DNA from: Sclerodactyla briareus
Taxonomy: Eukaryota > Echinodermata > Holothuroidea > Dendrochirotida > Sclerodactylidae
NCBI GenBank assembly: GCA_026419785.1
Contig: JAODTK010001065.1
Location: forward strand, 124,001-188,000
Direction: 5' to 3'
DNA: 64,000 nt
The first letter of the stretch is position 1; each line of letters begins with the position of its first letter. Shown here piece after piece: positions 18,116 to 34,880 of the stretch. A program made the position numbers and the translations under genes. The notes beneath the pieces were generated by a model, which did not search any database, was not told the origin of the DNA, and saw only the letters and a program-made list of their open reading frames with translations.

Positions 18116-18974
18116 AAACATGTTCCCTGGGTTTGGTCCGAAGTCATCTGGAATTTTGGTGGATTTAAAAATAAGGCAAGGAATCAATATACATTGTTGC
18201 ATTTATGTTTTTGTATCCTATTATGAAAGGGGGTTGAGTCGAACCCAAGGGAAGTTCGCCCTTATAAATGGCCTCACCCTCCTATTTGGCAATAATAAAA
18301 TTTCTGGGCCCCAGACCATGTTGCGTGCAATATCGCTAAATAACAGCTGCCAAACCTTCCTTTCTGAACCTGCCGAAAACTAACTCTTTCTTGTGTTAAA
18401 AATTATTGATCACTTGGGTCATGGGGATCTGACCCCCAAACCCCCCCCCCCCCGTGCGTACGCCCCCCCCCCCTCCCCCTCCCCTGCGCGTGTACCCACT
18501 GATGTACTTGGCTGATTAGGTGGATATTATTTCGTTCAAACATATCCTAACATCACGATTATGTGAGCAAAGTGCATTGATGCAGTGTTTTCATGTTGTA
18601 TCTACATGGGTGAATATTTTTTTGTAATGTATCATGATAGGTTGTAGTGAGTTCAATACACTATAATTACAACAATTATGTTGAGGCTAAATAGGGTGTA
18701 ATCCTTCTAATTTACGTATCATTGCATTCAGCGCAGAAAAGTTTCTTGTATTCAATCATTATTTGATTAAGGAATTGCCCCTAAAACATTAAATCCTGCC
18801 ATGTGGGGCACTTCTTTTTGCCATGATTGTGTAGCTGTAATTCTTGTTCTACTTCAAATTTCACAATTTCATTCTAATATTTTACAGCTTGTTGTTTGAT
18901 TTTCACCTTGAAATCTTTCATTCTGGGATTTCAATAATAATAAATATTCTGCCTTGAATCTTGTTATATTCGGG
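18116..18974. other. No recognisable gene; C-rich tract
   Basis: Two long C runs separated by GTGCGTACG lie at about 18438-18485. The rest is AT-rich and without coding motifs, up to the left edge of the tandem duplication. Confidence 0.45.
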
Positions 18975-19029
18975 AAATGACATGAGGTCTGAGATAATTC
19001 AATTATATGACCTGAAACTGTCCTCAAAT

Positions 19030-19412
19030 TTGTTCTAATAATTTGTAGTTTGGAGCTAGTCCGTTTTGCTTGTGAGTTGCCTCTTACTAAAAACACGTTG
19101 TCGGTGACCACAGACTAGAGATTGAAAGCTGATAGTAGGGAGAGGCACCACACTGAGTAGCACATTTGCTAGTCCAGATATAGTCCGTGTAAATCGAATT
19201 CATTTTGTAGCTAGTCTGGGTGCTCTAGTCGGTGACTGGTAAAGTGATCATCTCTTAGTCAGTAGCAATGCTTACGTTAGTCTGTTATGATATAAATGAC
19301 TATTGGGTAAACTAGTGGTTCTGGAATAACGACTAGAAGCTATCAGTCAGTGGCTGTATTGGCACTGTCCCTGAACGAGTTACTCTAGTCAGTAGGACTA
19401 ATTAGGTTTCAG
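19030..19412. repeat. Dense cluster of TAGTC/GACTA pentamers
   Basis: About a dozen TAGTC or GACTA words, often as CTAGTC(A/G)GT or GCTAGTCC, occur in 380 bp at irregular spacing and in both orientations. It ends at a 15-A run (19414-19428). The motif is too regular for ordinary sequence but has no fixed period. It is copied exactly in the second unit at 25581-25963. Confidence 0.55.
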
Positions 19413-19429
19413 TAAAAAAAAAAAAAAAC

Positions 19430-20085
19430 CCTCCCCCCGCTCTGGACATTCATTGACAGCGATTTATCGAACTGCTCCCCCCAATCTTTGTTAATGACCC
19501 ATCCGGCACGGGGACGCGGCGGCTACAAATCATTATCATAATATGGACACAGTGCCCCGAAATATGATTGGCTTTCGGGGGGTGTGAGGCGCTAATTTAG
19601 GACCTGTCACGAAACTAATACAATTCTTTCCATGCAGGAAAGAATAGCGTTATATACATTTGGTAAGTTTGCATTTTAGAGATCTGATGTTTGGGCCTTT
19701 GGTTCTGAGATAACAGAAGGCCATTTGTAAAATGACTCTTTGCGTTTTCAACTGACATCGTTAAACCCGGGGGAGTCGTTGTCAATTTTCAATTTACGAG
19801 AAGAAATTCACTCTTCACCGTAACTATAACCACAGTGAACTTCTTTGATTATTTACATGCTACCAAATCTGGAATTAACTGCCAAATGATGTACACTTTG
19901 CAAATTACATTCGTAATTCAAAAATGAGCTAACAGTTATCTATTCCTGAAATACTCAAAATACTTCAGACTCGTTCCAGTACAGTCACTTTCTAGCATCC
20001 CTTTTTTGTTTCATTTTCTATATATGCTTATGCTATGGGTCCCCAGCCTCGATAAACATATTGTTTTTCTAGTATCCCGCTAGTA
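19430..20085. other. No recognisable gene
   Basis: No coding frame or tRNA-like sequence is visible. The stretch leads into the 3' end of the minus-strand LINE. It is identical in the second unit. Confidence 0.4.
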
Positions 20086-20089
20086 TACT

Positions 20090-21560
20090 TAGTACTTTAT
20101 TATGTTAATCATAATAATACAAACTTTATAATGCGCCATCTATCTAGCGAACTAATCCCGGGCGCAGATACAAAGACACATAACGTCGGAACGGTTTTCA
20201 AGTGAGATCTGAAAGTGATTTCAGAGGTGTAGTTCCTCAAATGAAGTGGCGGATCATTCCACCGCGCCGGTAGGAGCGGCAGTTGCAAACGAACGATTTC
20301 CATAAGTGGATGAGGACCTAGGGACAACAGAAGAGATTCTCACAAGACCTAAGTCGTACGTGGCGCAGGGACATATGGGGTAATCAGAGTAGTGATGTAT
20401 TCAGGAGGCGCTGCCATTCATAGCCTTCCAGGGGCATTTGTAATCGTTGCGCTCACGTATTGGGAGCCATGTAGATCTTGAAAGACTGGCGTTATGGTGC
20501 TCAGATTCCCTTTGTCTAATGTCCAACACCCTAGCAGCAGCGTTCTGAACAAGATGGCGCTTATTACGATGTTTCATCATGAATACAAAAATGAGGAGTT
20601 GCTTCTATCGAGGCGTGAGAGAACCCAAAGCATCATGAAAAAAAAAAAAAAAAAAAAAAAAGAACAGAGCGGCCTGAATCTGACAAGCGATTTACTGATT
20701 GAAGGAAGATTCCTGATAGAATAAGAGTCTGGGGTGCCTAATTTCCCTTATTTGAGGTTCCAATCGTCATAGCAGCATTGAACAAAACCCCAAGAGTTTC
20801 AGGCAGTTGGGACAAGACTGAACTGGGCGTCGCCAATTTGAATACAGTTTTGCTTAATTTTGGTTGTTGATGCGTTTTAGGGGCCATAGGCATTAACTCC
20901 GTTTTGGCATCATTGAAAGCTCAAGTTTATTCCAATGTTCATCCCTGCTGATCTCAGTTATCACAGGACTCAACTCGCTGTCGAGCTAGGGCATTAGGGA
21001 AGTTTAGAGCTCAATGGTAGAGCAGCTGTGTATCGCGTCAGCAAACAGGTGGATTTCATCAGTGCCGTACTTGTGAGCAATTACAGCACACAACGGGACT
21101 CGTATATCACTCGAAGCAATAGTACCACACCGGGGGGAACCTGAGGACAACCAAATTTATGCAGTTGGTCAAACATGGCTCGACTACTCCAGTATTGAAC
21201 TCTCCATCATGCTCCCCCGCAAAAGTTAAATGGATCCAGTCCATTCTGCCTCCTGACCCAGAGATTCCGACGTAAAGTAGTATGCCATGATCCAGAATGT
21301 CAAATGCGGCTGACAACTCTATAGCAAAAAATCACCCCACGTTTATTATCCAACGTTATCCACGATTATGTACAGATTAGCGATTTAGTGAACCATACCA
21401 GCCATAGATTCCTGGATCCCTGGCCAGGCAGCTGAGTGAGGTCGAATCGTTCGGTTTATTTCCATTCCCGCCATCGAACACTCTAATTCATTAACCAAGG
21501 CGTTCCGGCTACCGACAAGTCTCTAATCCACAGGGTCTTCTCAATTTATTGCTTCGCGAG
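20090..21560 (-). mobile_element. CR1-like LINE, 5'-truncated and decayed (unit 1 copy)
   Basis: On the minus strand the order of motifs follows a CR1-group reverse transcriptase. SAAFDILDHGILL (about 21314-21275) matches motif A of the LSAAFDTIDHDILL type and is followed by a GISGS block. A degenerate VPP-G-VLL block (motif B) lies near 21140, then HKYGTDEIHLF in the place of YADDTQLY. ARWNDPPLHLRNYTSEITF with SHLK-T (about 20270-20190) is the usual C-terminal LWN-LPLHLR block. Several frameshifts and stops separate these, and the catalytic YADD is replaced by YGTD, so the copy is dead. The 3' end runs into an AT-rich TTATTATGATTAACATAATAA tail near 20090. A 24-A run at 20638-20661 interrupts the frame. 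Confidence 0.85.
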
Positions 21561-21899
21561 TACGGTACTCTTTTTGGGACCTGACATAAAATTGATACAA
21601 AATCCTCCGAATGGGATAGAAAGGATAGAGGATACTATACATAGATACATGAACCTTTGGCATAGGCTACATACGCCTATTCGTGAAATATGGCGTGTGT
21701 TTTGAGTATCACTTGCCAGTTCACTCAATTAGAAAACTATAGAACCAATGGTTCGTAACTCCCAACCGGACAACATTTTCACTATGTATGAACTGGTATG
21801 AGTTGTTATTGGAAGTTGTGCATTGGCTTTCAATTATACTGACCCTCGATGACAAACGGAGCGAGCATCATGCACAACTTCATTTGTGACAGGAGAATA

Positions 21900-24330
21900 C
21901 ATAGTTTCCACACAGGGCCCTTTAGGGCTCCTTCAATGATCTTCGACCTCGACATTTGGGTGGTCAAATGTCACCCAGCAGTCAATATATATTTGTCCAA
22001 CTCAGCCATCAACACGAGCATTTAAGTGCCAAAAACATGCAAATTACACATCATCCTACAATTTGGACAAATTGCCTAACCCCCCCCCTCCCCCCTCCAC
22101 CCCCTCCCTTTGATGACCTTCCACGTATAATCCTGTTGGACCCATAATTACTACTAGTCAATAATTAAACTGTTCACATATCATGGCAATCTGTCCTAAC
22201 CTGCAGAAGTAACGTTTTGCAGTTTTCACATCTGCTCGTTGACCCCTTTCCATGTCATTTGACCTTGACTTCATGTGGGTCATGACTATGCATTGGTCAA
22301 TGAACATGGTGACCAAGTGTGTTAAGAGCCATTGAAGCATGAGAGTCAAGGGCCTAAAACATCAATTGCCATATTCCTTTTACAATTTGAACATAATTTA
22401 ATGACCTTTCACCTCCGATTCCTTACAATGCATGAGTACCACTAACAATGATTATACTGATCATGTATATGTCTCAAATTCACTACAACCTCCATGCCTC
22501 TACCAAAGCCATACATGTAACTTCGAAAATATCACTTGGAGCGTGTGGGAGGAATTGCTTCCAGTACTAGTATGTGTTTTTTTTTCCCTCTCTTTTTCCA
22601 TTGCTTCTGACCTTATACGCACGTGGCTTACCTCATATAGAAAGTCATGCATATAAATTAAATTGATATAAAATAGGCGAAGCCAGAGCCAATACTTTCT
22701 CCCAGATAGACCTGCTCCATATTTTCTTGAAGAATAATCTTTTGCAACGAAATATTGATAATTATTATAGCACCATTAACGTGATAGCCTGTATTCGTGT
22801 GGGGGTGGCAGGGTGGTGGTGGTGGTGGAAGATGTAACTTTTAGCAACCATAATTATACGTTCAGTACTCGCGGCCAAATCACCAACCAATAGCACAGCA
22901 GAGATATCTTAATGTACCATAGCATTGGAAATTTCTATGCTACTTTTTCCTGTGCTTCCATATCCTTTGTTCAAACTTAACTGAAAAATAAATGCTCAAT
23001 AGTCTCATCATAAAGCCAGACAGAAACTGCACTTACTCGATGGAAAATACCAATCTTGTGTAAATACACATGGGTCGGAATAATTCTCTGCAATAGCGAT
23101 ATTGAAGCCACCGATATAACCATCGCCATAAGAATTAAACGGCAACCGCACAGAAAACTTTCCAATCCTCATAGAGATATCGAAAAGTGTTTGCCCATTG
23201 AGATAGGAGTTACTTGACCATGGTTTGACTATAAACAATCCTACAATCCAAACTATGATGGTTACAATGCATTCAAAATATTGTTAACCGTGCTCACCAG
23301 CAATGACTATCAACTTGGCCATTGCAATTCTGCCAGCCACTTAAACAAAGCTACTAGGCCATGGTACTTCCAAGAAATATTACTTTTAATGGAATACTTT
23401 TTCACAGAAATGTTCGTAGTTAGAAATACACCGTCAGTAATCTAACTATCACTCACAAAAGGACCTCCACCTGTGCCCAACTACGATAATAAACAGGGCG
23501 ATTATCATTTGGGCAAATACTGTTATCCAATAGGCATATATATAATATATAATACCCCACAAAGTGAGATATAATCAATAAGAGTATTGAACCTATTCAA
23601 AACAGTAAGCTGAATAAAAAACGTCCTCCCACGAAAATTCTTTATATGTGAGCGGTATTCATATAATGATTACCATTTCTAAAGAACTCTTCCAGTAATA
23701 CGTTATGACTCTCAAAAGTCAATGCGAAATTGTTCTGAAACTATTAAGTAAATTCCGGAAAACAGTAACTTTCGAAGAAGTACAATGCGTAGAGAAGTCA
23801 ACCATTTTGAGACCGCCGTCGAATAGCACACTGGTAAATCTGTCACGACTGATCTATCAGGCATGTATTTGAAATGAAATGAAAAAGGCGAAGTGTTAAT
23901 TTTGGGATATATTTTTCTGATGGTAGTGGCCGTGACAATATGTAGTAATTGAAGCAAGGGAGAATAAGAGACTTGACCACTGTTATTCGTGGTCCCAAGG
24001 TCATCCCAAGGTACTCTACCCAAGGACCAATACCATGTAACCACTTCAAGAATATCAATTGTGGAGCATGTGGAGGAGATGCATTCAGGTACTATTAGGT
24101 GAAATCAATAAAGTCGGGCCCCCTCGTGCCAAAGGGGGATCTTGGATCGAAATGCCGACAACAACACGAAGGTATGTCTGTTAGACCATAATTATGACCG
24201 TAGGTCAGCACTGTGACCAAAATTGTATAAGAGGAGAAGCCTATTGCATAATTTCACATGATGGGCCCCAGGACCACACTGGTCCCTGTTGTCCTAATCA
24301 TCTGGACACGCTACGTAACGGCCCCATCAT
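21900..24330. repeat. GGTCA-type dispersed or tandem repeat block (unit 1)
   Basis: Recurring words include TTTGATGACCTTCCAC and TAATGACCTTTCACC, and a conserved block of the form ACATGTAACTTCGAA...GGAGGAATTGCTTCCAGTACTA. That block occurs near 22502 and again near 24023. It also recurs on the far side of the plus-strand LINE, near 34315. A run of Cs lies at about 22080-22110. The middle part (about 22575-24000) is AT-rich and may be a separate insert. It contains a 76-residue minus-strand frame (23008-23238) that I do not recognise. Confidence 0.5.
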
Positions 24331-24399
24331 GCCAGCTTAATGACCGAACAACAGTACTGTGCAACAGATTTGTGTGCGATACAAGCCTTCGTGTATTCC

Positions 24400-25525
24400 A
24401 TATATAGGGCCCTAGATCGGTGTTTCGGGGTGCCCAATCGAGGTCCGTGCTCTCCCGAATTATCCTTTGTTGTCTCTGTCTTGTCGTAGTGCCGCTGGGG
24501 TTTTCCACTTGCCCTTCCTTTGCCTCCCTTCTTCCTACCTTATCATTTATTTCAGTTTCTCATACGACAACTACTGCAGCAGCCCCTCACGTGACATCTG
24601 GTTCTCTTTTTTATTTTCCTCTTTTCGCGAATATACGCGGTCTCCCCCGCAATCTCAACCATTCCCACCAACTCCTCATGGCTCACCATCCCATCTACTA
24701 CTTTTTTTAACTTAAACAACAGATTAAATCACCTCTTGCTTTAACCATCTCCAGTGTCCCAACTATATTCTTCAAGATTGTTTTTCATTTTTAAGGCTGA
24801 GTGTGCGCCTTTGTCCACTCCACATCCCATCCCTGTCAGCCGCCTATTTGATTTTGATCTCTGTTGTGATGACGTTCAACTTCCTGGCTCAACGTCTCCT
24901 CTTCCGTCCTCTCTTCCTCCTCTCTTCCCCTCGTTTGACTAAGGTGTTGGTTGTTTTACCGTTCGCCCAATTTGTAATAATCACGAAGGCTCTATTCTCA
25001 GGCATCTCACCTCTGCTGTTGGATTACTAATTCAACGATATAACGACTGTGACATTGCTATAACTACTGTGATTTCAATGTGCATAACGCAGAATGGCTC
25101 ATACACTCTATCGCCTCTGATAGAGCTTGGTGTCCGAAGCTGAGTCTTTTGCTATTATACCATGGTCTCACCCAGCTCATCAAATTCTCCCACCGTATCC
25201 CCGACCCGGGCCGTCGGAACTCTGCTACTTGTGGATCTCTTTCTCCCTACTCAGCCCCTTATTTACAAGAGTCCAGCAACTGTCTCTTGCCTATTGTCCT
25301 CCACTGACCATTGCCTCATTACCCCCGTGTTCTCATCAATCTAACTCCTATATGCACGTCCCCACCAAAGCAGAACTCTGGACTACTCCAAAGCTACGGG
25401 TTTGGTCTTCGGGGATTTTTTCAGCAGTCTTCCCTTGGGATGAAACACCTTCTCAGATGACCCCTCTACCCTCTGCTTCTGCTATTTCGAATTATTCTTT
25501 TAGGAATGAACGCTTTTAATTCCGT
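24400..25525 (+). mobile_element. LINE with apurinic-type endonuclease, 5' part only (unit 1)
   Basis: The plus strand encodes, with frameshifts, the endonuclease (EEP) domain of a LINE. NIRGL lies at about 24628. The segment at 25046-25100 carries IAITT and then DFNVHNAEW, matching the catalytic ILGDFNVHH block. SSTDHCLIT (about 25297-25323) matches the catalytic SSDHNLI block. A post-endonuclease linker with FPWDET follows. The element is cut at 25525 by the junction with the second unit, so the reverse transcriptase is missing. The family resembles the Jockey/BS-like or Nimb-like LINEs known from crustaceans and other invertebrates; the clade is my inference. Confidence 0.85.
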
Positions 25526-26639
25526 AAATGACATGAGGTCTGAGATAATTCAATTATATGACCTGAAACTGTCCTCAAATTTGTTCTAATAATTTGTAGT
25601 TTGGAGCTAGTCCGTTTTGCTTGTGAGTTGCCTCTTACTAAAAACACGTTGTCGGTGACCACAGACTAGAGATTGAAAGCTGATAGTAGGGAGAGGCACC
25701 ACACTGAGTAGCACATTTGCTAGTCCAGATATAGTCCGTGTAAATCGAATTCATTTTGTAGCTAGTCTGGGTGCTCTAGTCGGTGACTGGTAAAGTGATC
25801 ATCTCTTAGTCAGTAGCAATGCTTACGTTAGTCTGTTATGATATAAATGACTATTGGGTAAACTAGTGGTTCTGGAATAACGACTAGAAGCTATCAGTCA
25901 GTGGCTGTATTGGCACTGTCCCTGAACGAGTTACTCTAGTCAGTAGGACTAATTAGGTTTCAGTAAAAAAAAAAAAAAACCCTCCCCCCGCTCTGGACAT
26001 TCATTGACAGCGATTTATCGAACTGCTCCCCCCAATCTTTGTTAATGACCCATCCGGCACGGGGACGCGGCGGCTACAAATCATTATCATAATATGGACA
26101 CAGTGCCCCGAAATATGATTGGCTTTCGGGGGGTGTGAGGCGCTAATTTAGGACCTGTCACGAAACTAATACAATTCTTTCCATGCAGGAAAGAATAGCG
26201 TTATATACATTTGGTAAGTTTGCATTTTAGAGATCTGATGTTTGGGCCTTTGGTTCTGAGATAACAGAAGGCCATTTGTAAAATGACTCTTTGCGTTTTC
26301 AACTGACATCGTTAAACCCGGGGGAGTCGTTGTCAATTTTCAATTTACGAGAAGAAATTCACTCTTCACCGTAACTATAACCACAGTGAACTTCTTTGAT
26401 TATTTACATGCTACCAAATCTGGAATTAACTGCCAAATGATGTACACTTTGCAAATTACATTCGTAATTCAAAAATGAGCTAACAGTTATCTATTCCTGA
26501 AATACTCAAAATACTTCAGACTCGTTCCAGTACAGTCACTTTCTAGCATCCCTTTTTTGTTTCATTTTCTATATATGCTTATGCTATGGGTCCCCAGCCT
26601 CGATAAACATATTGTTTTTCTAGTATCCCGCTAGTATAC

Positions 26640-28110
26640 TTAGTACTTTATTATGTTAATCATAATAATACAAACTTTATAATGCGCCATCTATCTAGCG
26701 AACTAATCCCGGGCGCAGATACAAAGACACATAACGTCGGAACGGTTTTCAAGTGAGATCTGAAAGTGATTTCAGAGGTGTAGTTCCTCAAATGAAGTGG
26801 CGGATCATTCCACCGCGCCGGTAGGAGCGGCAGTTGCAAACGAACGATTTCCATAAGTGGATGAGGACCTAGGGACAACAGAAGAGATTCTCACAAGACC
26901 TAAGTCGTACGTGGCGCAGGGACATATGGGGTAATCAGAGTAGTGATGTATTCAGGAGGCGCTGCCATTCATAGCCTTCCAGGGCATTTGTAATCGTTGC
27001 GCTCACGTATTGGGAGCCATGTAGATCTTGAAAGACTGGCGTTATGGTGCTCAGATTCCCTTTGTCTAATGTCCAACACCCTAGCAGCAGCGTTCTGAAC
27101 AAGATGGCGCTTATTACGATGTTTCATCATGAATACAAAAATGAGGAGTTGCTTCTATCGAGGCGTGAGAGAACCAAAGCATCATGAAAAAAAAAAAAAA
27201 AAAAAAAAAAGAACAGAGCGGCCTGAATCTGACAAGCGATTTACTGATTGAAGGAAGATTCCTGATAGAATAAGAGTCTGGGGTGCCTAATTTCCCTTAT
27301 TTGAGGTTCCAATCGTCATAGCAGCATTGAACAAAACCCCAAGAGTTTCAGGCAGTTGGGACAAGACTGAACTGGGCGTCGCCAATTTGAATACAGTTTT
27401 GCTTAATTTTGGTTGTTGATGCGTTTTAGGGGCCATAGGCATTAACTCCGTTTTGGCATCATTGAAAGCTCAAGTTTATTCCAATGTTCATCCCTGCTGA
27501 TCTCAGTTATCACAGGACTCAACTCGCTGTCGAGCTAGGGCATTAGGGAAGTTTAGAGCTCAATGGTAGAGCAGCTGTGTATCGCGTCAGCAAACAGGTG
27601 GATTTCATCAGTGCCGTACTTGTGAGCAATTACAGCACACAACGGGACTCGTATATCACTCGAAGCAATAGTACCACACCGGGGGGAACCTGAGGACAAC
27701 CAAATTTATGCAGTTGGTCAAACATGGCTCGACTACTCCAGTATTGAACTCTCCATCATGCTCCCCCGCAAAAGTTAAATGGATCCAGTCCATTCTGCCT
27801 CCTGACCCAGAGATTCCGACGTAAAGTAGTATGCCATGATCCAGAATGTCAAATGCGGCTGACAACTCTATAGCAAAAAATCACCCCACGTTTATTATCC
27901 AACGTTATCCACGATTATGTACAGATTAGCGATTTAGTGAACCATACCAGCCATAGATTCCTGGATCCCTGGCCAGGCAGCTGAGTGAGGTCGAATCGTT
28001 CGGTTTATTTCCATTCCCGCCATCGAACACTCTAATTCATTAACCAAGGCGTTCCGGCTACCGACAAGTCTCTAATCCACAGGGTCTTCTCAATTTATTG
28101 CTTCGCGAGT
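26640..28110 (-). mobile_element. CR1-like LINE, 5'-truncated and decayed (unit 2 copy)
   Basis: This is the duplicate of the minus-strand LINE at 20090-21560. It has the same motif order, the same decayed YGTD in place of YADD, the same internal 24-A run and the same AT-rich 3' tail. Its reverse transcriptase C-terminal block lies at about 26820-26740 and its FDILDH block at about 27863-27830. The two copies share the same frameshifts, so they arose by duplication of an already dead element, not by separate insertions. Confidence 0.85.
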
Positions 28111-28439
28111 ACGGTACTCTTTTTGGGACCTGACATAAAATTGATACAAAATCCTCCGAATGGGATAGAAAGGATAGAGGATACTATACATAGATACATG
28201 AACCTTTGGCATAGGCTACATACGCCTATTCGTGAAATATGGCGTGTGTTTGAGTAATCACTTTGCCATTCAGGCGCTCATGAAAAACTAGAAGAACAAT
28301 GGTTCATACTCCAACCGGGACACTTTTCAATATTTATTGACTGGTATGATGTGTTATTGGCGTTGTGCATTATTTCAGTTATACTGACCCTCGATGACAC
28401 GGAGCGAGCATCAAGCATGCACAATTCATTTGTGACGTC

Positions 28440-30930
28440 ATGAGATACATAGTTTTCCACAAGATGGCCTGTTAGGCCCTTCAATGATCTTCGACCCTCG
28501 CCATTTGGGTGGTCAAATGTCCCACCCACATCATAGATATTTGTCAACCAATTCCATCAAAAAAAACACGACTTTAAAAGTGGCCCAAAAACATGCAAAT
28601 ACCCATCATCCTAAAATTTGGACAAAATTGCCTAACCCCCCCCCCCCCTCCACCCCCTCCCTTTGATGACCTTTCCACCTATAATCCTGTTGGACGCATA
28701 AGGTACTACTGGTCAATGATTATACTTTCCATACATGGCAACTCTACCTTATCGGCAAAGTAAACGTTTTGCAGTTTTTCCCACATCATGTCATGGCCGT
28801 TGAAAACCTTCCATGTCATTTGAATTTGACCTTGACCTTCATGTGGTCAATGACGATTCATTGGTCAATGAACATTGTGACCAAGGTGTAAGTTAACTCC
28901 ATTGAGCATGAGTATGCAAGGGCCGAAAACATGCAATTTGCAAATCATTTTTACATTTGAACATAATTAAATGACCTTCCACCTCGCGATTCCTTACAAT
29001 GCATGAGTACCACTAAATCCATGATTAACTGACCTGTATCATGACATTATCAAAATTCACTAACACCTCCATGGCCCTCTACCCAAAGGCCAATACATGT
29101 ACTTCGAATAATATCAATTGGACGTGTGGGAGGAGATGCATTCCAAGTACTAGTATGGTGTTTTTTTTTTTCTCTCTGTTTCATTGCTCTTGACCTATAT
29201 ACGCACTGGGATTAACGGAATATAGAAAGTCAATGCATATAAATTAAATATGATATAAAAAAATAGGCGAAGCCAAGCCAACTTTCCCCTCTTTTCCCCC
29301 AGATGACCTTCCATATTTTCTTGAAGAATAATCTTTTGCAAACTCGGAAATAATTATATGATTATACAACCATTAACTGTAGGGATAGCCTTATTACGTT
29401 GGCAATTGAAGATGTAACTTTTAGCAACCATAATGAACGTTCATACGCGGGGCAAAATCACCAACAAATAGCACAGCAGAGATATCTAATCGACCATAGC
29501 ATTGGAATTTCTATGGCTACTTTCCATGTGCTTTCCATATCCTTGTCAAACTTACACGAAAAAATAAATGCTCAATAGTCTCACATCATAAAGCAGACAG
29601 AAACTGCACTTCACACTCGAGGTGAAAAAAATACCAATCCGTGGTGTAAATCCAACATTGGTCCGGATAATTCTTTGCAATATGCGATAGTGAAGCCACC
29701 GAAACTATAAACAGCGCCAGATTAATTAAACGGCAAACCGACAGAACTTTTCCATCCTCAGTAAGATATCGAAGTTTTTTTTGCCCATTTGAGTAGGATT
29801 TACTTGGACCATGTTTGACTATAAACAATCCTACAATCCAAACTATGATTGGTTAAACATGCATTCAAAATATTGTTAACCGGTCACCCCAGCACTGACT
29901 AAAATTGGCAATTTGCATTCTGCCAGCACTTAACCGAAGCTACTTACTAGGAGGCCTGGTACATGCTACTCCAAGAAATTTACTTTTAATGGAAGCTTTT
30001 CACAGAAATTTCGTACGTTAAAATACAACAAATACAAAAAACAAAACCCGTTCATTATCTAACAGATCACTCACAAAAAGGACTCCACGCTTGCCCAACG
30101 TGACCGATAATAAACGGCGATTATCATTTGGAAAATACGTATTTTTCCAAATAGAGACATTAATTATATATATATATATAGTATACCCCCAAAAAGTATA
30201 TTTCAATAAGAAGTATTGTAACCTATTCAAAAAACAGTAAGCCGAATAAAAAACGTCCTCCCAAGAAGATTCTTTATATGTGAGTTCTGGTAATTCTTTA
30301 TATAATATCAGCACTTCTTAAGAATCTTCAAAGTCTACGGTTATGACTCCTCCAAAGCCATGCCGGAAATTGTCTGAACTCTTAAGTAATTCCGGAAAAC
30401 AGTAACTTTCGAAGAAGTAACAATGCGTAGAGAAGTCAACCATTTTGAGACCGCCTCGGAATAGACTGGTAAATCTGGTCACGACTGATTCTATCAGGCA
30501 TATTCACATGAATGAAAAAGCGAAGTGTTATTTTTGGAGATTATAGTTTTCTGATGGTAGTGGAAGTGACAATTGTAGTAATTGAGCAAGGAAGATAAGA
30601 GACTTTATCCATGTTTTCGTCCCAAGGTCATTCATCCCAAGGTACTCTAACCAGGACCAATACATGTAATTCGAAGATATCAATTGTGGAGCAGTGGGAG
30701 GAGATGCTTTCAGGTACTTTATGTGACATCAATAAATTGGCCTCGTTCCAAATGGGATCTTGGATCGAACATTCCGGAACACACGAAGGTATGTCTGAGA
30801 CCTTCATTTATACCGTTGTCGCACTGTGCACCAAAATGTGTATACTAGGAAAGCATATTGCATAATTTCACATGAGGGGCCCAGACCCACACTTGCCTGT
30901 TCCTAAATCTCTGGACACCCTGAAGTTAAC
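28440..30930. repeat. GGTCA-type repeat block (unit 2)
   Basis: Counterpart of 21900-24330. It has the TTTGATGACCTTTCCACC word, the ACATGTACTTCGAA...GGAGGAGATGCATTCCAAGTACTA block near 29095 and its second copy near 30650. A short TA microsatellite lies at about 30165-30182. The counterpart of the unit 1 minus-strand frame is present at 29586-29828 but broken and shifted, which argues against it being a conserved gene. Confidence 0.5.
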
Positions 30931-31228
30931 GGCGGCCTCGTCCAGCAGTATTACCGAACAACCGTACTGTGCACAGAATTTGTTGGAGAACAAGCCCTAG
31001 CCTTCTTGGTTATTCCATATAATGGGCCCTAGATCGGTGTTTCGGGGTGCCCTCTCGAGGTCCGTGCTCTCCTATTTAGTCTTTGTTGGTGTCGTGTCGA
31101 TGCCATGGGTTTTCCATTGCCCTTCCTTTGTCCTCCTTTCTTACTACTTAATCATGGTTATTCAGTTTCTCATACGACCCCTCTGCAGCCCCACGTTTGA
31201 CATCTGTTCTCTTTTTCTTTCTCTTTCG

Positions 31229-31900
31229 AATATACGCGGTCTTCCAACCGCAATCGTCAACCATGTCCACCAACTCCTCAATGGCTCAGCGCATCCTCAT
31301 CTACTTTTTTTTAACTGAAACACGATTAAATCACCTCTGGGATAACACATCTCCAGTGTCCCAACTATATTCTTCTTGATTGTTTCAGTTAAGGCTGAGT
31401 GGCGCCTTTGTCCAACTCCAGCATCCCTGTCAAGCCGCCTTCTGAATTTGATCTCTGTTTTGATGACTTTCAACTTCTCTGGCTCAAAGTCTCCTCTTCC
31501 CGTCGTTTGACTAAGGTGTTCGGGTGTGTTTACCGTTCGCCCAACTGTATAATCACGAGGCTCTATTCTCGCAACTCACCTCTGCTGTTGAATTACGATT
31601 CAACGAGATACCGACTGTAAATTGCTATAACTGAGTGATTTCATGTGATAACGCAGACTGGCTCATACACTCTACCGGCTTTGATAGAGCTGGTGTCGAA
31701 CCTGATCTTTGCTATTACCAATGGTCGCACCCAGCTCATCCAATTCTCCCACCCGTATGCCAGATCGGGCCTCGGACCTGCTAACTGTTTGATCTCTTTC
31801 TCACTACTTAGCCCCTTATTTACAGTCCAGCAGCTGTCTCTGCCCCTATTGCCTCCTCTGCCATTGCCTCATTCCCCCTTCCTCATCAATCTAACTCCTC
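31229..31900 (+). pseudogene. LINE endonuclease domain, frameshifted
   Basis: This would nick target DNA to prime reverse transcription. Visible pieces are NIRGL- near 31229, HPHLLFF and then TETRLNHL around 31290-31335, VYRSPNC near 31530 (usual form AVYRSPN), and a Phe-Asn-rich DFM-type stretch near 31636 where the GDFN catalytic block should be. Decayed SDH and S-D-HCLI-like sequence is near 31850. Compared with the unit 1 copy at 24628-25345, frames shift at different places in the two copies. That is unexpected if a single duplication copied an already broken gene and the sequence is accurate. Confidence 0.7.
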
Positions 31901-32549
31901 TAATGCAAGCTCCCCACCAAAGGCAGAACTCTGGAACACTCCAAAGCTTACTGGTTTGGTCTTCGGGGTTTTTTTCAGTCTTCCCCTTGGGATGAAACTA
32001 ACTACCTTCTCAGATGACCCCTCTACCTCTGCGTCTTCGCTATTTCGGAAAATATTCTTTTAGGAATGAACGCTTTTATTCCCTACACTTTTAAGATTCA
32101 TGCTCCTCTCATCACCTTCATGGTTCAACCATCAATGTATTACTGCCGTCCAGGAGAAGAACCGCCTTTATCGAGCTTGCTATCTTCCTTTCCCTGATTC
32201 CCGTCAGCCTATGTTACTGCTCTTAATTGTTGTGCTCTGAGACTATCGTTGAGGCAAAAAACTCTTTCACTTCACGTATGGCTAATAAACTTTCACTCCT
32301 GCCCTTCTGGTAGTCGTTCATTTTGTCAAGCTGGCCAAATCTGTGTCCCAGACTTCTGTACTTTCCAATTCCCTCCGCTGGTCAAACCTGATGCTCTATT
32401 GGCTAGTGATGCCACTCTAAAGCTAATACTATACTTTGCCGAGCGATTCTCTTCTAATTCCCCTATGAACACAGACTCATCCTCCCCCATCTTTTTGCCA
32501 GCTGGTGTGAACGATCTTTGGATGTGTTTTCACTCTCGCATGGTCCACC

Positions 32550-34135
32550 AAACCTCATGTTTTAGCCATTAATAAAATCCATTCTGGTCCTGATGGGGCA
32601 ATTCTTCTCCTATGTCCCTCCTAAGTATGCCCCGAACTTGCGCCTATCCTACAAGCTTTCCCCCGCTTTGTTATACTATGGGATGCTACCCTTCTGTGTG
32701 GGAACATGCTCATTTCTGCCCAGTCCCTAAAAGGGTGGAACAACTCCACCACCTCCAATTACCAGGCCGATTTGCCATCAACCTCGGTCCTCTCCAAGTT
32801 AGGAAACTATAGTAAACAGCATTTTTTGAACTTCTTGACTTCACTCTCTCATCTGACCACCAGTATGGTTTTTTCTCCCGGCATGGCCGATCTACTGGGG
32901 ACCTTTCTTGAGGTTCACTCTCTCATCAGTGACCACCAGTAATGGTTTCCTCCGGCATGGCCGATCTACTGGGGACCTACTATCTTTTGTCACCAATCAG
33001 TTGGCCCAAGCCATAGAGTTTTTCGGTGAAAGTAGGGCTATTGCCTTGATATCTCTAAGAGGCCTTTGACCGTGTTTGGCACGCCGGACTCCTTGCAAAT
33101 GAACTTCTTTGGTTTCAAGCCCCCTCTAACCTCTTTGGACTGCCAGTGTTCTTACCGGTCGCTCTATCTCTTTTAGGGGTTGATGGTTCTCTCGCCTCTC
33201 TCCTCTCCGAGACCTTCGTATCATGCCTGGTGTTCCTCAAGGTGTGTTTTCTCTCCTACATGTTCTCATTTTTATCAATGATCTTCTAGCTCCTACCTCC
33301 TATTTATTCCCATGCTCATGTTCTACCCTTCAACCCTCTCTGTGCTTTCCTCACGCCCCGAAGCGAACTATTTTTGTCTCAACCGTTCCCTAGTTGCCCA
33401 TCAGCTGAACAATGATCTTCATTCATTTTGAACTGGGGCACGGCTATCTGGTTACCTTCAACCAATCTAAAACTCAGACTTGCTGATTTCTGGTCGGCTT
33501 GTTTCTGAATGCACCAGCTATTTTCAATGGCTGACCAGATCCGCCTCAGTCTACTTCTCTTAATCCTTGGTATGGAAATCAGCAACAACCTGTCTGGCAC
33601 TCCCTCAAGCTAAATCGCTACGAATGCTGCTAGAACGTTTGGGCTTCTTATTCCGCACAAGGAAATACTTCACCTCACAAAAGCTACTTCTGCTTTACAC
33701 AGCCCAAATTCGCTCCCTAATGGAATATGGTTGCCATTTTTTGGGGTGGGGCTTTTCGCCATCCTGTCTCATTGTCCTTGATCGTATCCAGAGAAAGGCC
33801 ATCGTACCTCATCGACGATTATCATCTTACCTCCTCACTTGACTCTCTATCCCCTCGCAGATCTGTATCATCTCTCTGCTCCTTTACCGTTACGTTTCAT
33901 GGGCAATGTTCTTCTGAGCTTGTGGGGATGCTTGTTCCTCCTTTACTCGAGTTACCGCCATAACTCGCGCTTCTTCTTCCATTCCACCACCCGTTCGTTG
34001 CATCTTCCACGTCAACGCACCGAAACCTATGCTCGCTCCTTTTTTCCTCGCGCACGTTCGCGTGCCTGGACTAGGCTTCCTCCGGATGTATTTCCTCCTG
34101 ATTGTGACCTCCAGGCGGTTCAAGAGTAGAATTAA
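32550..34135 (+). pseudogene. LINE reverse transcriptase and C-terminal region, frameshifted
   Basis: Reverse transcriptase blocks in order: LCYTMGCYPSVWEHAH with PVPK (about 32660-32735), a QYGF-HGRSTGDL block near 32925-32985, and LDIS-AFDRVWHAGLL, motif A with its catalytic Asp (about 33045-33095). Next come a MPGVPQG-type motif B near 33222-33245 and FINDLLAPT near 33275. The YADD catalytic block near 33310 is not intact; the sequence reads as SHAH followed by a shift. The thumb and C-terminal region has LLFRTRKYFTSQKLLLLYTAQI (33636-33705), MEYGCHF and FHGQCSSEL. A 65-bp segment carrying the HQYGF block is duplicated in tandem (32840-32904 and 32914-32978). Confidence 0.8.
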
Positions 34136-34257: not shown

Positions 34258-34880
34258 AGCCCAAAGTGGCCCTAGGCGACAAATTCCGGACGCCCCAAAT
34301 GCCCTCTCCCCGAGGACCATTAACATGTAACTTTGAAGAAAATCATGAATCTTGTGGGAAGAGATGCCTCTCAAGTACCATTGTGTGAAATTTCACAAAA
34401 TGGCCCTCATCCAAGTGGGACCGTTGGACTAAACCTTCCTGAACAACCCGAAGGGTACGGCTGTTTAGACAACCATTTTACCGATTTGTCAGCACTATGC
34501 CACCAAAATTCGTATAAGATACAGATTTTGCGGTATTTCATCTAATGGGCCCGAGAGCCCAAGTGGGCCAGGCCAATATTCACGCACACCCCCAATGGCA
34601 CTCTACTCAAAGACCATTACATATAACTTTATGATGTTAGACCATCATTATGAATGAATGTAAGCACTGTGCATCAAAATTTTAGTAGAAGTGCGTTTTC
34701 GGCAGTTTTTCCACGCATGGGCCCCATTGTGCCCCTTTGATGCCATTTGACTTTGACGTTTGGTGGTCAAGTGATGGACCCTCAAGTCAATACAATTGGA
34801 CCGAGTCCTGGTCGAGATTCATCGTGCAACGAACATTTTGGGGCTCCAACACCAGAATTTTTAACAACTGGATAGATGAT
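34258..34880. repeat. GGTCA-type repeat block flanking the LINE on its 3' side
   Basis: The block GGACCATTAACATGTAACTTTGAAG...GAGATGCCTCTCAAGTACCATTGTGTGAAAT (34315-34390) matches the block at 24023-24105 on the other side of the LINE. Downstream words match as well: CACCAAAATTCGTATAAGA against GACCAAAATTGTATAAGAG, and TCATCTAATGGGCCCGAG against TCACATGATGGGCCCC. A further partial copy starts near 34613 (GACCATTACATATAACTTT). The LINE therefore sits inside this repeat. Confidence 0.55.

What the first reader, a model, noticed from the sequence alone, without database searches (positions are those of the whole stretch)
18975..32083. Tandem duplication with an abrupt identity step
The first 2.73 kb of the two 6.55-kb units match except for two homopolymer-length differences. 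At about 21703/28252 the match changes within a few bases to noisy alignment with many single-base indels in both directions, and stays so for 3.8 kb. One duplication event followed by neutral drift would not give such a step. Either a gene conversion tract ends there, or the second blocks are raw or gap-filled long-read sequence and the first blocks are polished from the same reads.
Basis: seen in the sequence. Interest (0 to 1): 0.7.

Follow-up and report, generated by a model that had tools for sequence, protein, structure and literature searches.

The report
Unpolished sequence noise in a duplication
The sudden drop in similarity between two side-by-side copies of a 6.5-kb stretch is most likely a sequencing artefact: the repeat-rich part of both copies looks like uncorrected long-read sequence, so it says nothing about how the DNA evolved.

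Summary
Two 6.55-kb units lie head to tail. Their first 2.73 kb (A1/A2) differ by two one-base homopolymer gaps; from 21703/28252 the rest (B1/B2) differs by 388 indel events and 187 substitutions in 3.8 kb.

The step is best read as sequencing noise, not gene conversion. B1/B2 substitutions are 58% A<->C or G<->T and 18% transitions, against 35% and 46% in diverged copies of A. Third copies show private differences in both B1 and B2. The end of B belongs to an abundant repeat (TE2): 11 copies, B1 and B2 included, fit a star tree, and B1 is no closer to B2 than to copies on other contigs. The noise runs past the unit end, to about 34.0 kb.

So A looks corrected, while B looks like repeats left near raw long-read quality in both copies. 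The left edge (18975) and the right edge (32082) are native sequence; only 25524/25525 is a new junction. Whether the duplication is real, or two unmerged overlapping contig ends, cannot be told without reads.

The parts
18975..21702 (+). A1: clean first block of unit 1; its left edge lies inside native sequence shared with two other loci
   Evidence: matches from C463 and C3085 run through 18975
21703..25524 (+). B1: noisy second block of unit 1, made of repeats
24410..25524 (+). part of B1 that is a truncated copy of the abundant repeat called TE2 here
   Evidence: nine fetched TE2 loci stop matching between 25506 and 25528
25524..25526 (.). the only new junction: inside of TE2 joined to the start of A2, at most 1-3 shared bases
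25526..28251 (+). A2: clean first block of unit 2, equal to A1 but for two one-base homopolymer gaps
28252..32082 (+). B2: noisy second block of unit 2
31027..34012 (+). TE2 in unit 2, which runs on past the unit end with the same kind of noise
   Evidence: nine of nine fetched TE2 loci align through 32083; eight give further matches reaching 33345-34012

Best explanation
The step is the border between corrected and uncorrected assembly sequence. A1 and A2 were brought to high accuracy, by short-read contigs used as anchors or by polishing. From 21703/28252 on, the sequence consists of repeats, one of them with dozens of copies, and correction failed in both units, so B1 and B2 stayed near single-pass long-read quality (about 6-14% private difference each, by measure and copy). 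The step falls at the same base in both units because success of correction depends on the sequence, which is the same in both. Shown here: the step, the noise-like spectrum, private differences in both copies, the same noise in other copies of the repeat, noise running past the unit end. Inferred: the platform (PacBio continuous long reads fit best), the pipeline, and why correction stopped there. Left open: whether the duplication under the noise is real.
For: 388 indel events to 187 substitutions, 302 of 388 one base long. Substitutions 108 of 187 A<->C or G<->T and 34 of 187 transitions, against 172 and 221 of 485 for A1 aligned to six diverged copies with the same scoring; Fisher p 2e-7 and 2e-11. 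Private differences in both B1 and B2 in 11 of 11 third-copy comparisons: one (18 columns to B1's side, 28 to B2's, 9 neither, of 55) and ten (L020: 149 private to B1, 192 to B2; nine TE2 loci: 115-165 and 75-113). Eleven TE2 pieces fit a star tree, tips 0.046-0.10, rms residual 0.006, B1-B2 residual -0.003. The nine other TE2 copies show the same noise among themselves: indel/substitution 1.08, A<->C/G<->T 54%, transitions 28%. Noise continues past 32083. Simulated random noise gives indel/substitution 1.2-1.95; simulated neutral divergence 0.11 with 63% transitions.
Against: No reads were seen. The indel excess alone discriminates weakly: diverged copies of A are indel-rich too under loose gaps (571 indels, 485 substitutions; odds ratio 1.76). 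Among isolated substitutions the contrast is smaller (A<->C/G<->T 25 of 45 in B, 42 of 100 in the control). L020 against B1 and B2 shows a spectrum like the control (transitions 39% and 43%, A<->C/G<->T 30% and 29%), presumably because real divergence dominates there. The simulations used uniform substitutions and do not reproduce the A<->C/G<->T excess (28-37%). The insertion bias expected of PacBio reads is seen in private columns of B1's TE2 part (43-68 inserted, 5-23 deleted) but not of B2's (7-17 inserted, 12-30 deleted). Markov models do not single out B1 or B2.
Confidence: 0.9

Rival explanations
1. The duplication itself is false: two contig ends that overlap by 6.55 kb were put end to end because the noise in B hid the overlap. 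This is not exclusive with the best explanation; it answers the separate question of whether the duplication exists. The other answer is a real recent tandem duplication.
For: Layout is left flank, A B, A B, right flank, with both outer edges native and one new junction; no substitution at all in 2.73 kb of A; a published gap filler reports 'overfilled' gaps in which extensions from both sides show no overlap (PMC3504050, passages).
Against: A real tandem duplication gives the same layout and a collapsed A would be identical as well. There is no run of N at the junction (window has 0 N).
Confidence: 0.45
2. Only one of B1 and B2 is noisy; the other is correct sequence.
For: It would need only one border between corrected and uncorrected sequence; B1 has a longer tip than B2 in the star tree (0.10 against 0.08).
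Against: Third copies side with B1 against B2 and with B2 against B1 in substantial numbers in 11 of 11 comparisons.
Confidence: 0.05
3. Gene conversion: an old tandem duplication in which block A was recently made identical, while B shows the true older divergence.
For: A sharp step at a homologous base is what the end of a conversion tract looks like.
Against: Transitions are 18% of B1/B2 substitutions, below the one third expected at random (binomial p 6e-6) and far below the 46% of diverged copies. In its TE2 part B1 is no closer to B2 than to copies on other contigs. The noise continues outside the duplicated unit.
Confidence: 0.03

Closest known systems
Uncorrected PacBio long-read sequence in gap fills or hybrid-assembly backbones (PBJelly, PMC3504050; DBG2OLC, PMC5004134; passages read)
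   Same: Many one-base indels at a level near the stated raw error of about 15%; clean sequence next to noisy sequence; repeats affected
   Different: Insertion bias is seen only in part; the A<->C/G<->T excess was not found described in my searches; which pipeline made this assembly is unknown
False duplications in genome assemblies (PMC9516828, seen in a search listing with the start of its abstract only)
   Same: A duplicated stretch with a single new junction and no substitution in its clean part
   Different: Not shown to be false here; a real tandem duplication would look the same
Gene conversion tract between tandem duplicates (general knowledge)
   Same: Abrupt change of identity at a homologous position
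   Different: The differences beyond the step are not of the evolved kind

Membership tests
Uncorrected long-read sequence | One-base indels outnumber substitutions | tested here: met
   388 indel events (302 of one base) to 187 substitutions with loose gaps; with stiffer gaps 242 to 354, so the outcome depends on scoring, but it exceeds the diverged copies under both
Uncorrected long-read sequence | Substitution spectrum differs from the genome's own divergence | tested here: met
   weaker for isolated substitutions
Uncorrected long-read sequence | Errors are independent between copies | tested here: met
   star tree of 11 TE2 pieces with B1-B2 residual -0.003; private columns in both copies
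Uncorrected long-read sequence | Insertions exceed deletions, as stated for PacBio raw reads | tested here: inconclusive
   yes in B1's TE2 part and in B2's middle part, no in B2's TE2 part, even in B1's middle part
Uncorrected long-read sequence | Accurate reads do not support the differences | not testable with these tools
   no reads held
Gene conversion tract | Sequence beyond the tract shows evolved differences (transitions favoured, few indels) | tested here: not met
   transitions 34 of 187, indels 388 to 187 substitutions
Real tandem duplication | Outer edges native, one new junction | tested here: met
   an unmerged overlap of contig ends meets it equally
Real tandem duplication | Single molecules span the new junction | not testable with these tools
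   no reads held

The most novel reading that the evidence does not exclude
The noise is biological: a mutation process aimed at recently spread repeats in this genome that makes single-base indels and A<->C/G<->T transversions, and so blurs the copies of TE2 independently and about equally.
Probability: 0.02. Interest if true: 0.85.

Novelty: not a real feature. Interest (0 to 1): 0.12.

Why it matters
As biology it is ordinary. As a warning it is useful: the TE2 copies examined in this assembly carry roughly 5-10% private difference each that looks like noise, so ages of repeats, paralogue comparisons, gene-conversion scans and gene models in such stretches would mislead, and a repeat landscape drawn from it could show a false old burst.

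Tried and rejected
Markov models of order 3, 5 and 6 trained on 154 kb of the same genome did not separate B1, B2, A1 and A2 from ordinary chunks, and homopolymer-length distributions were inconclusive. A first MAFFT alignment turned many indels into substitutions and was replaced. Pfam scans of 30 stop-free frames (20 in the window, 10 in TE2 loci) gave no match at a curated cut-off, only weak ones below it, so TE2 could not be classed. No tRNA and no Rfam match in the window. C1059:250001-270000 was fetched as a possible counterpart of the unit and is not one: five short hits, which I take for dispersed or simple repeats. Eight literature searches: 23, 27, 28, 68 and 71 gave nothing of use; the six papers listed in 41 were not read; one listed papers on false duplications, none read; 38, by contig number, gave one unrelated fish genome. 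So the platform name is inference; I recall, from no call, that early PacBio dyes come in spectrally close pairs that could give an A<->C/G<->T bias.

Full report
What was checked. Self-comparison finds one long direct repeat, 18960-25523 against 25513-32082. Split at the reported step, block A (18975-21702 / 25526-28251) matches in 2726 of 2728 columns with two one-base homopolymer gaps, and block B (21703-25523 / 28252-32082) matches in 3346 of 4119 columns with 202 extra-base events in copy 1, 186 in copy 2 and 187 substitutions. The noise is even along B; the longest spacing between events (37 bases) is about what randomly placed events give (39).

What the differences are. B1/B2 substitutions are A<->C 56, G<->T 52, A<->T 26, C<->T 20, C<->G 19, A<->G 14. 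As control, A1 was aligned with the same scoring to the six best other loci fetched (L003-L008; one search scored 40 of 72 candidates and listed 51 matches, two of them A1 and A2): A<->G 135, A<->C 94, C<->T 86, G<->T 78, A<->T 51, C<->G 41. The spectra differ (Fisher p 2e-7 for A<->C/G<->T, 2e-11 for transitions). Results that weaken this: among isolated substitutions the contrast is smaller (25 of 45 against 42 of 100); with loose gaps the control is indel-rich too (571 to 485; B 388 to 187); and the control loci may carry noise themselves. Simulated neutral divergence to the same identity gives indel/substitution 0.11 and transitions 0.63; three simulated random-noise models give 1.2-1.95 and 0.32-0.40, but with uniform substitutions they do not make the A<->C/G<->T excess.

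Which copy is noisy. Both. A third copy of a small repeat at about 34303-34519 agrees with B1 in 18, B2 in 28 and neither in 9 of 55 differing columns. L020 (C155), a copy of the middle of B, leaves 149 private columns to B1 and 192 to B2. Nine copies of TE2, the repeat at 24410-25523 and 31027 onward, leave 115-165 to B1 and 75-113 to B2. Of 1819 candidates for B1 the search scored 40 and listed 44 matches, most of them TE2; for B2, 40 of 1743 and 41 matches, all but B2 itself being TE2.

The noise is not special to this duplication. The 11 TE2 pieces compared (B1, B2 and nine fetched loci) are 81-88% alike in every pair and fit a star tree with tips of 0.046-0.10 and rms residual 0.006; the residual of the pair B1-B2 is -0.003, so the two supposed duplicates are about as far from each other as from copies on other contigs. 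Among the nine other copies indel/substitution is 1.08, A<->C/G<->T 54%, transitions 28%. The simplest reading is a recently spread repeat whose copies are each blurred independently.

Borders. At 18975 the sequence is native: C463:318373-318937 and C3085:234044-234383 match continuously through it (loci L032 and L033 show the same C3085 place). At 32082/32083 it is native too: nine of nine fetched TE2 loci align through it, to 32430-32909, and eight give further matches that reach 33345-34012, with the same kind of noise. In unit 1 the nine matches stop between 25506 and 25528. The only new junction is 25524/25525, between the inside of TE2 and the start of A2, with at most 1-3 shared bases (by eye). 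This is the layout of a real tandem duplication and equally of two contig ends that overlap by 6.55 kb and were not merged. B1 and B2 also share the point at which TE2 starts (24410 / 31027), upstream of which other TE2 copies run on with a sequence that B lacks, so they derive from one locus or from a duplication of it.

Mechanism proposed. Block A was corrected in both copies by short-read contigs or polishing; block B consists of repeats, correction failed there, and the sequence stayed near raw long-read quality in both units. That the step sits at the homologous base in both follows from this. [quoted passage not shown] hybrid assembly that anchors raw reads with de Bruijn contigs and then polishes the raw backbone (PMC5004134). 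The expected insertion bias is met in B1's TE2 part and B2's middle part, absent in B1's middle part and reversed in B2's TE2 part. The platform and the pipeline are inference.

Verdict. The step is best explained as uneven base accuracy; gene conversion is not needed and not supported. Whether the duplication is real is left near even.

Noticed in passing
C1059:84409-121125 against C1059:187280-227768 (outside the window but for its last 0.7 kb; L009-L016): A colinear series of matches of 72-86% identity at an offset of about 100-110 kb, flanking the window on both sides: an old large tandem duplication or stitched divergent copies. Some blocks have noise-like spectra (109970-111822: A<->C/G<->T 51%), others do not (103512-104316: transitions 44%).
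   Followed up: partly
32832-32978: A 74-base tandem duplication inside TE2, present once in the seven of seven fetched TE2 loci that cover the place.
   Followed up: partly
21735-24232 (B1) and its counterpart in B2: A nested arrangement: C3118 matches B1 33-874 and 2303-2530, and C155 matches 877-2299 between them, as if a 1.4-kb element had inserted into an older repeat.
   Followed up: no
L019 (C103:458-1513): This TE2 copy is closest to all the others (star-tree tip 0.046 against 0.076-0.10), as if better corrected.
   Followed up: no
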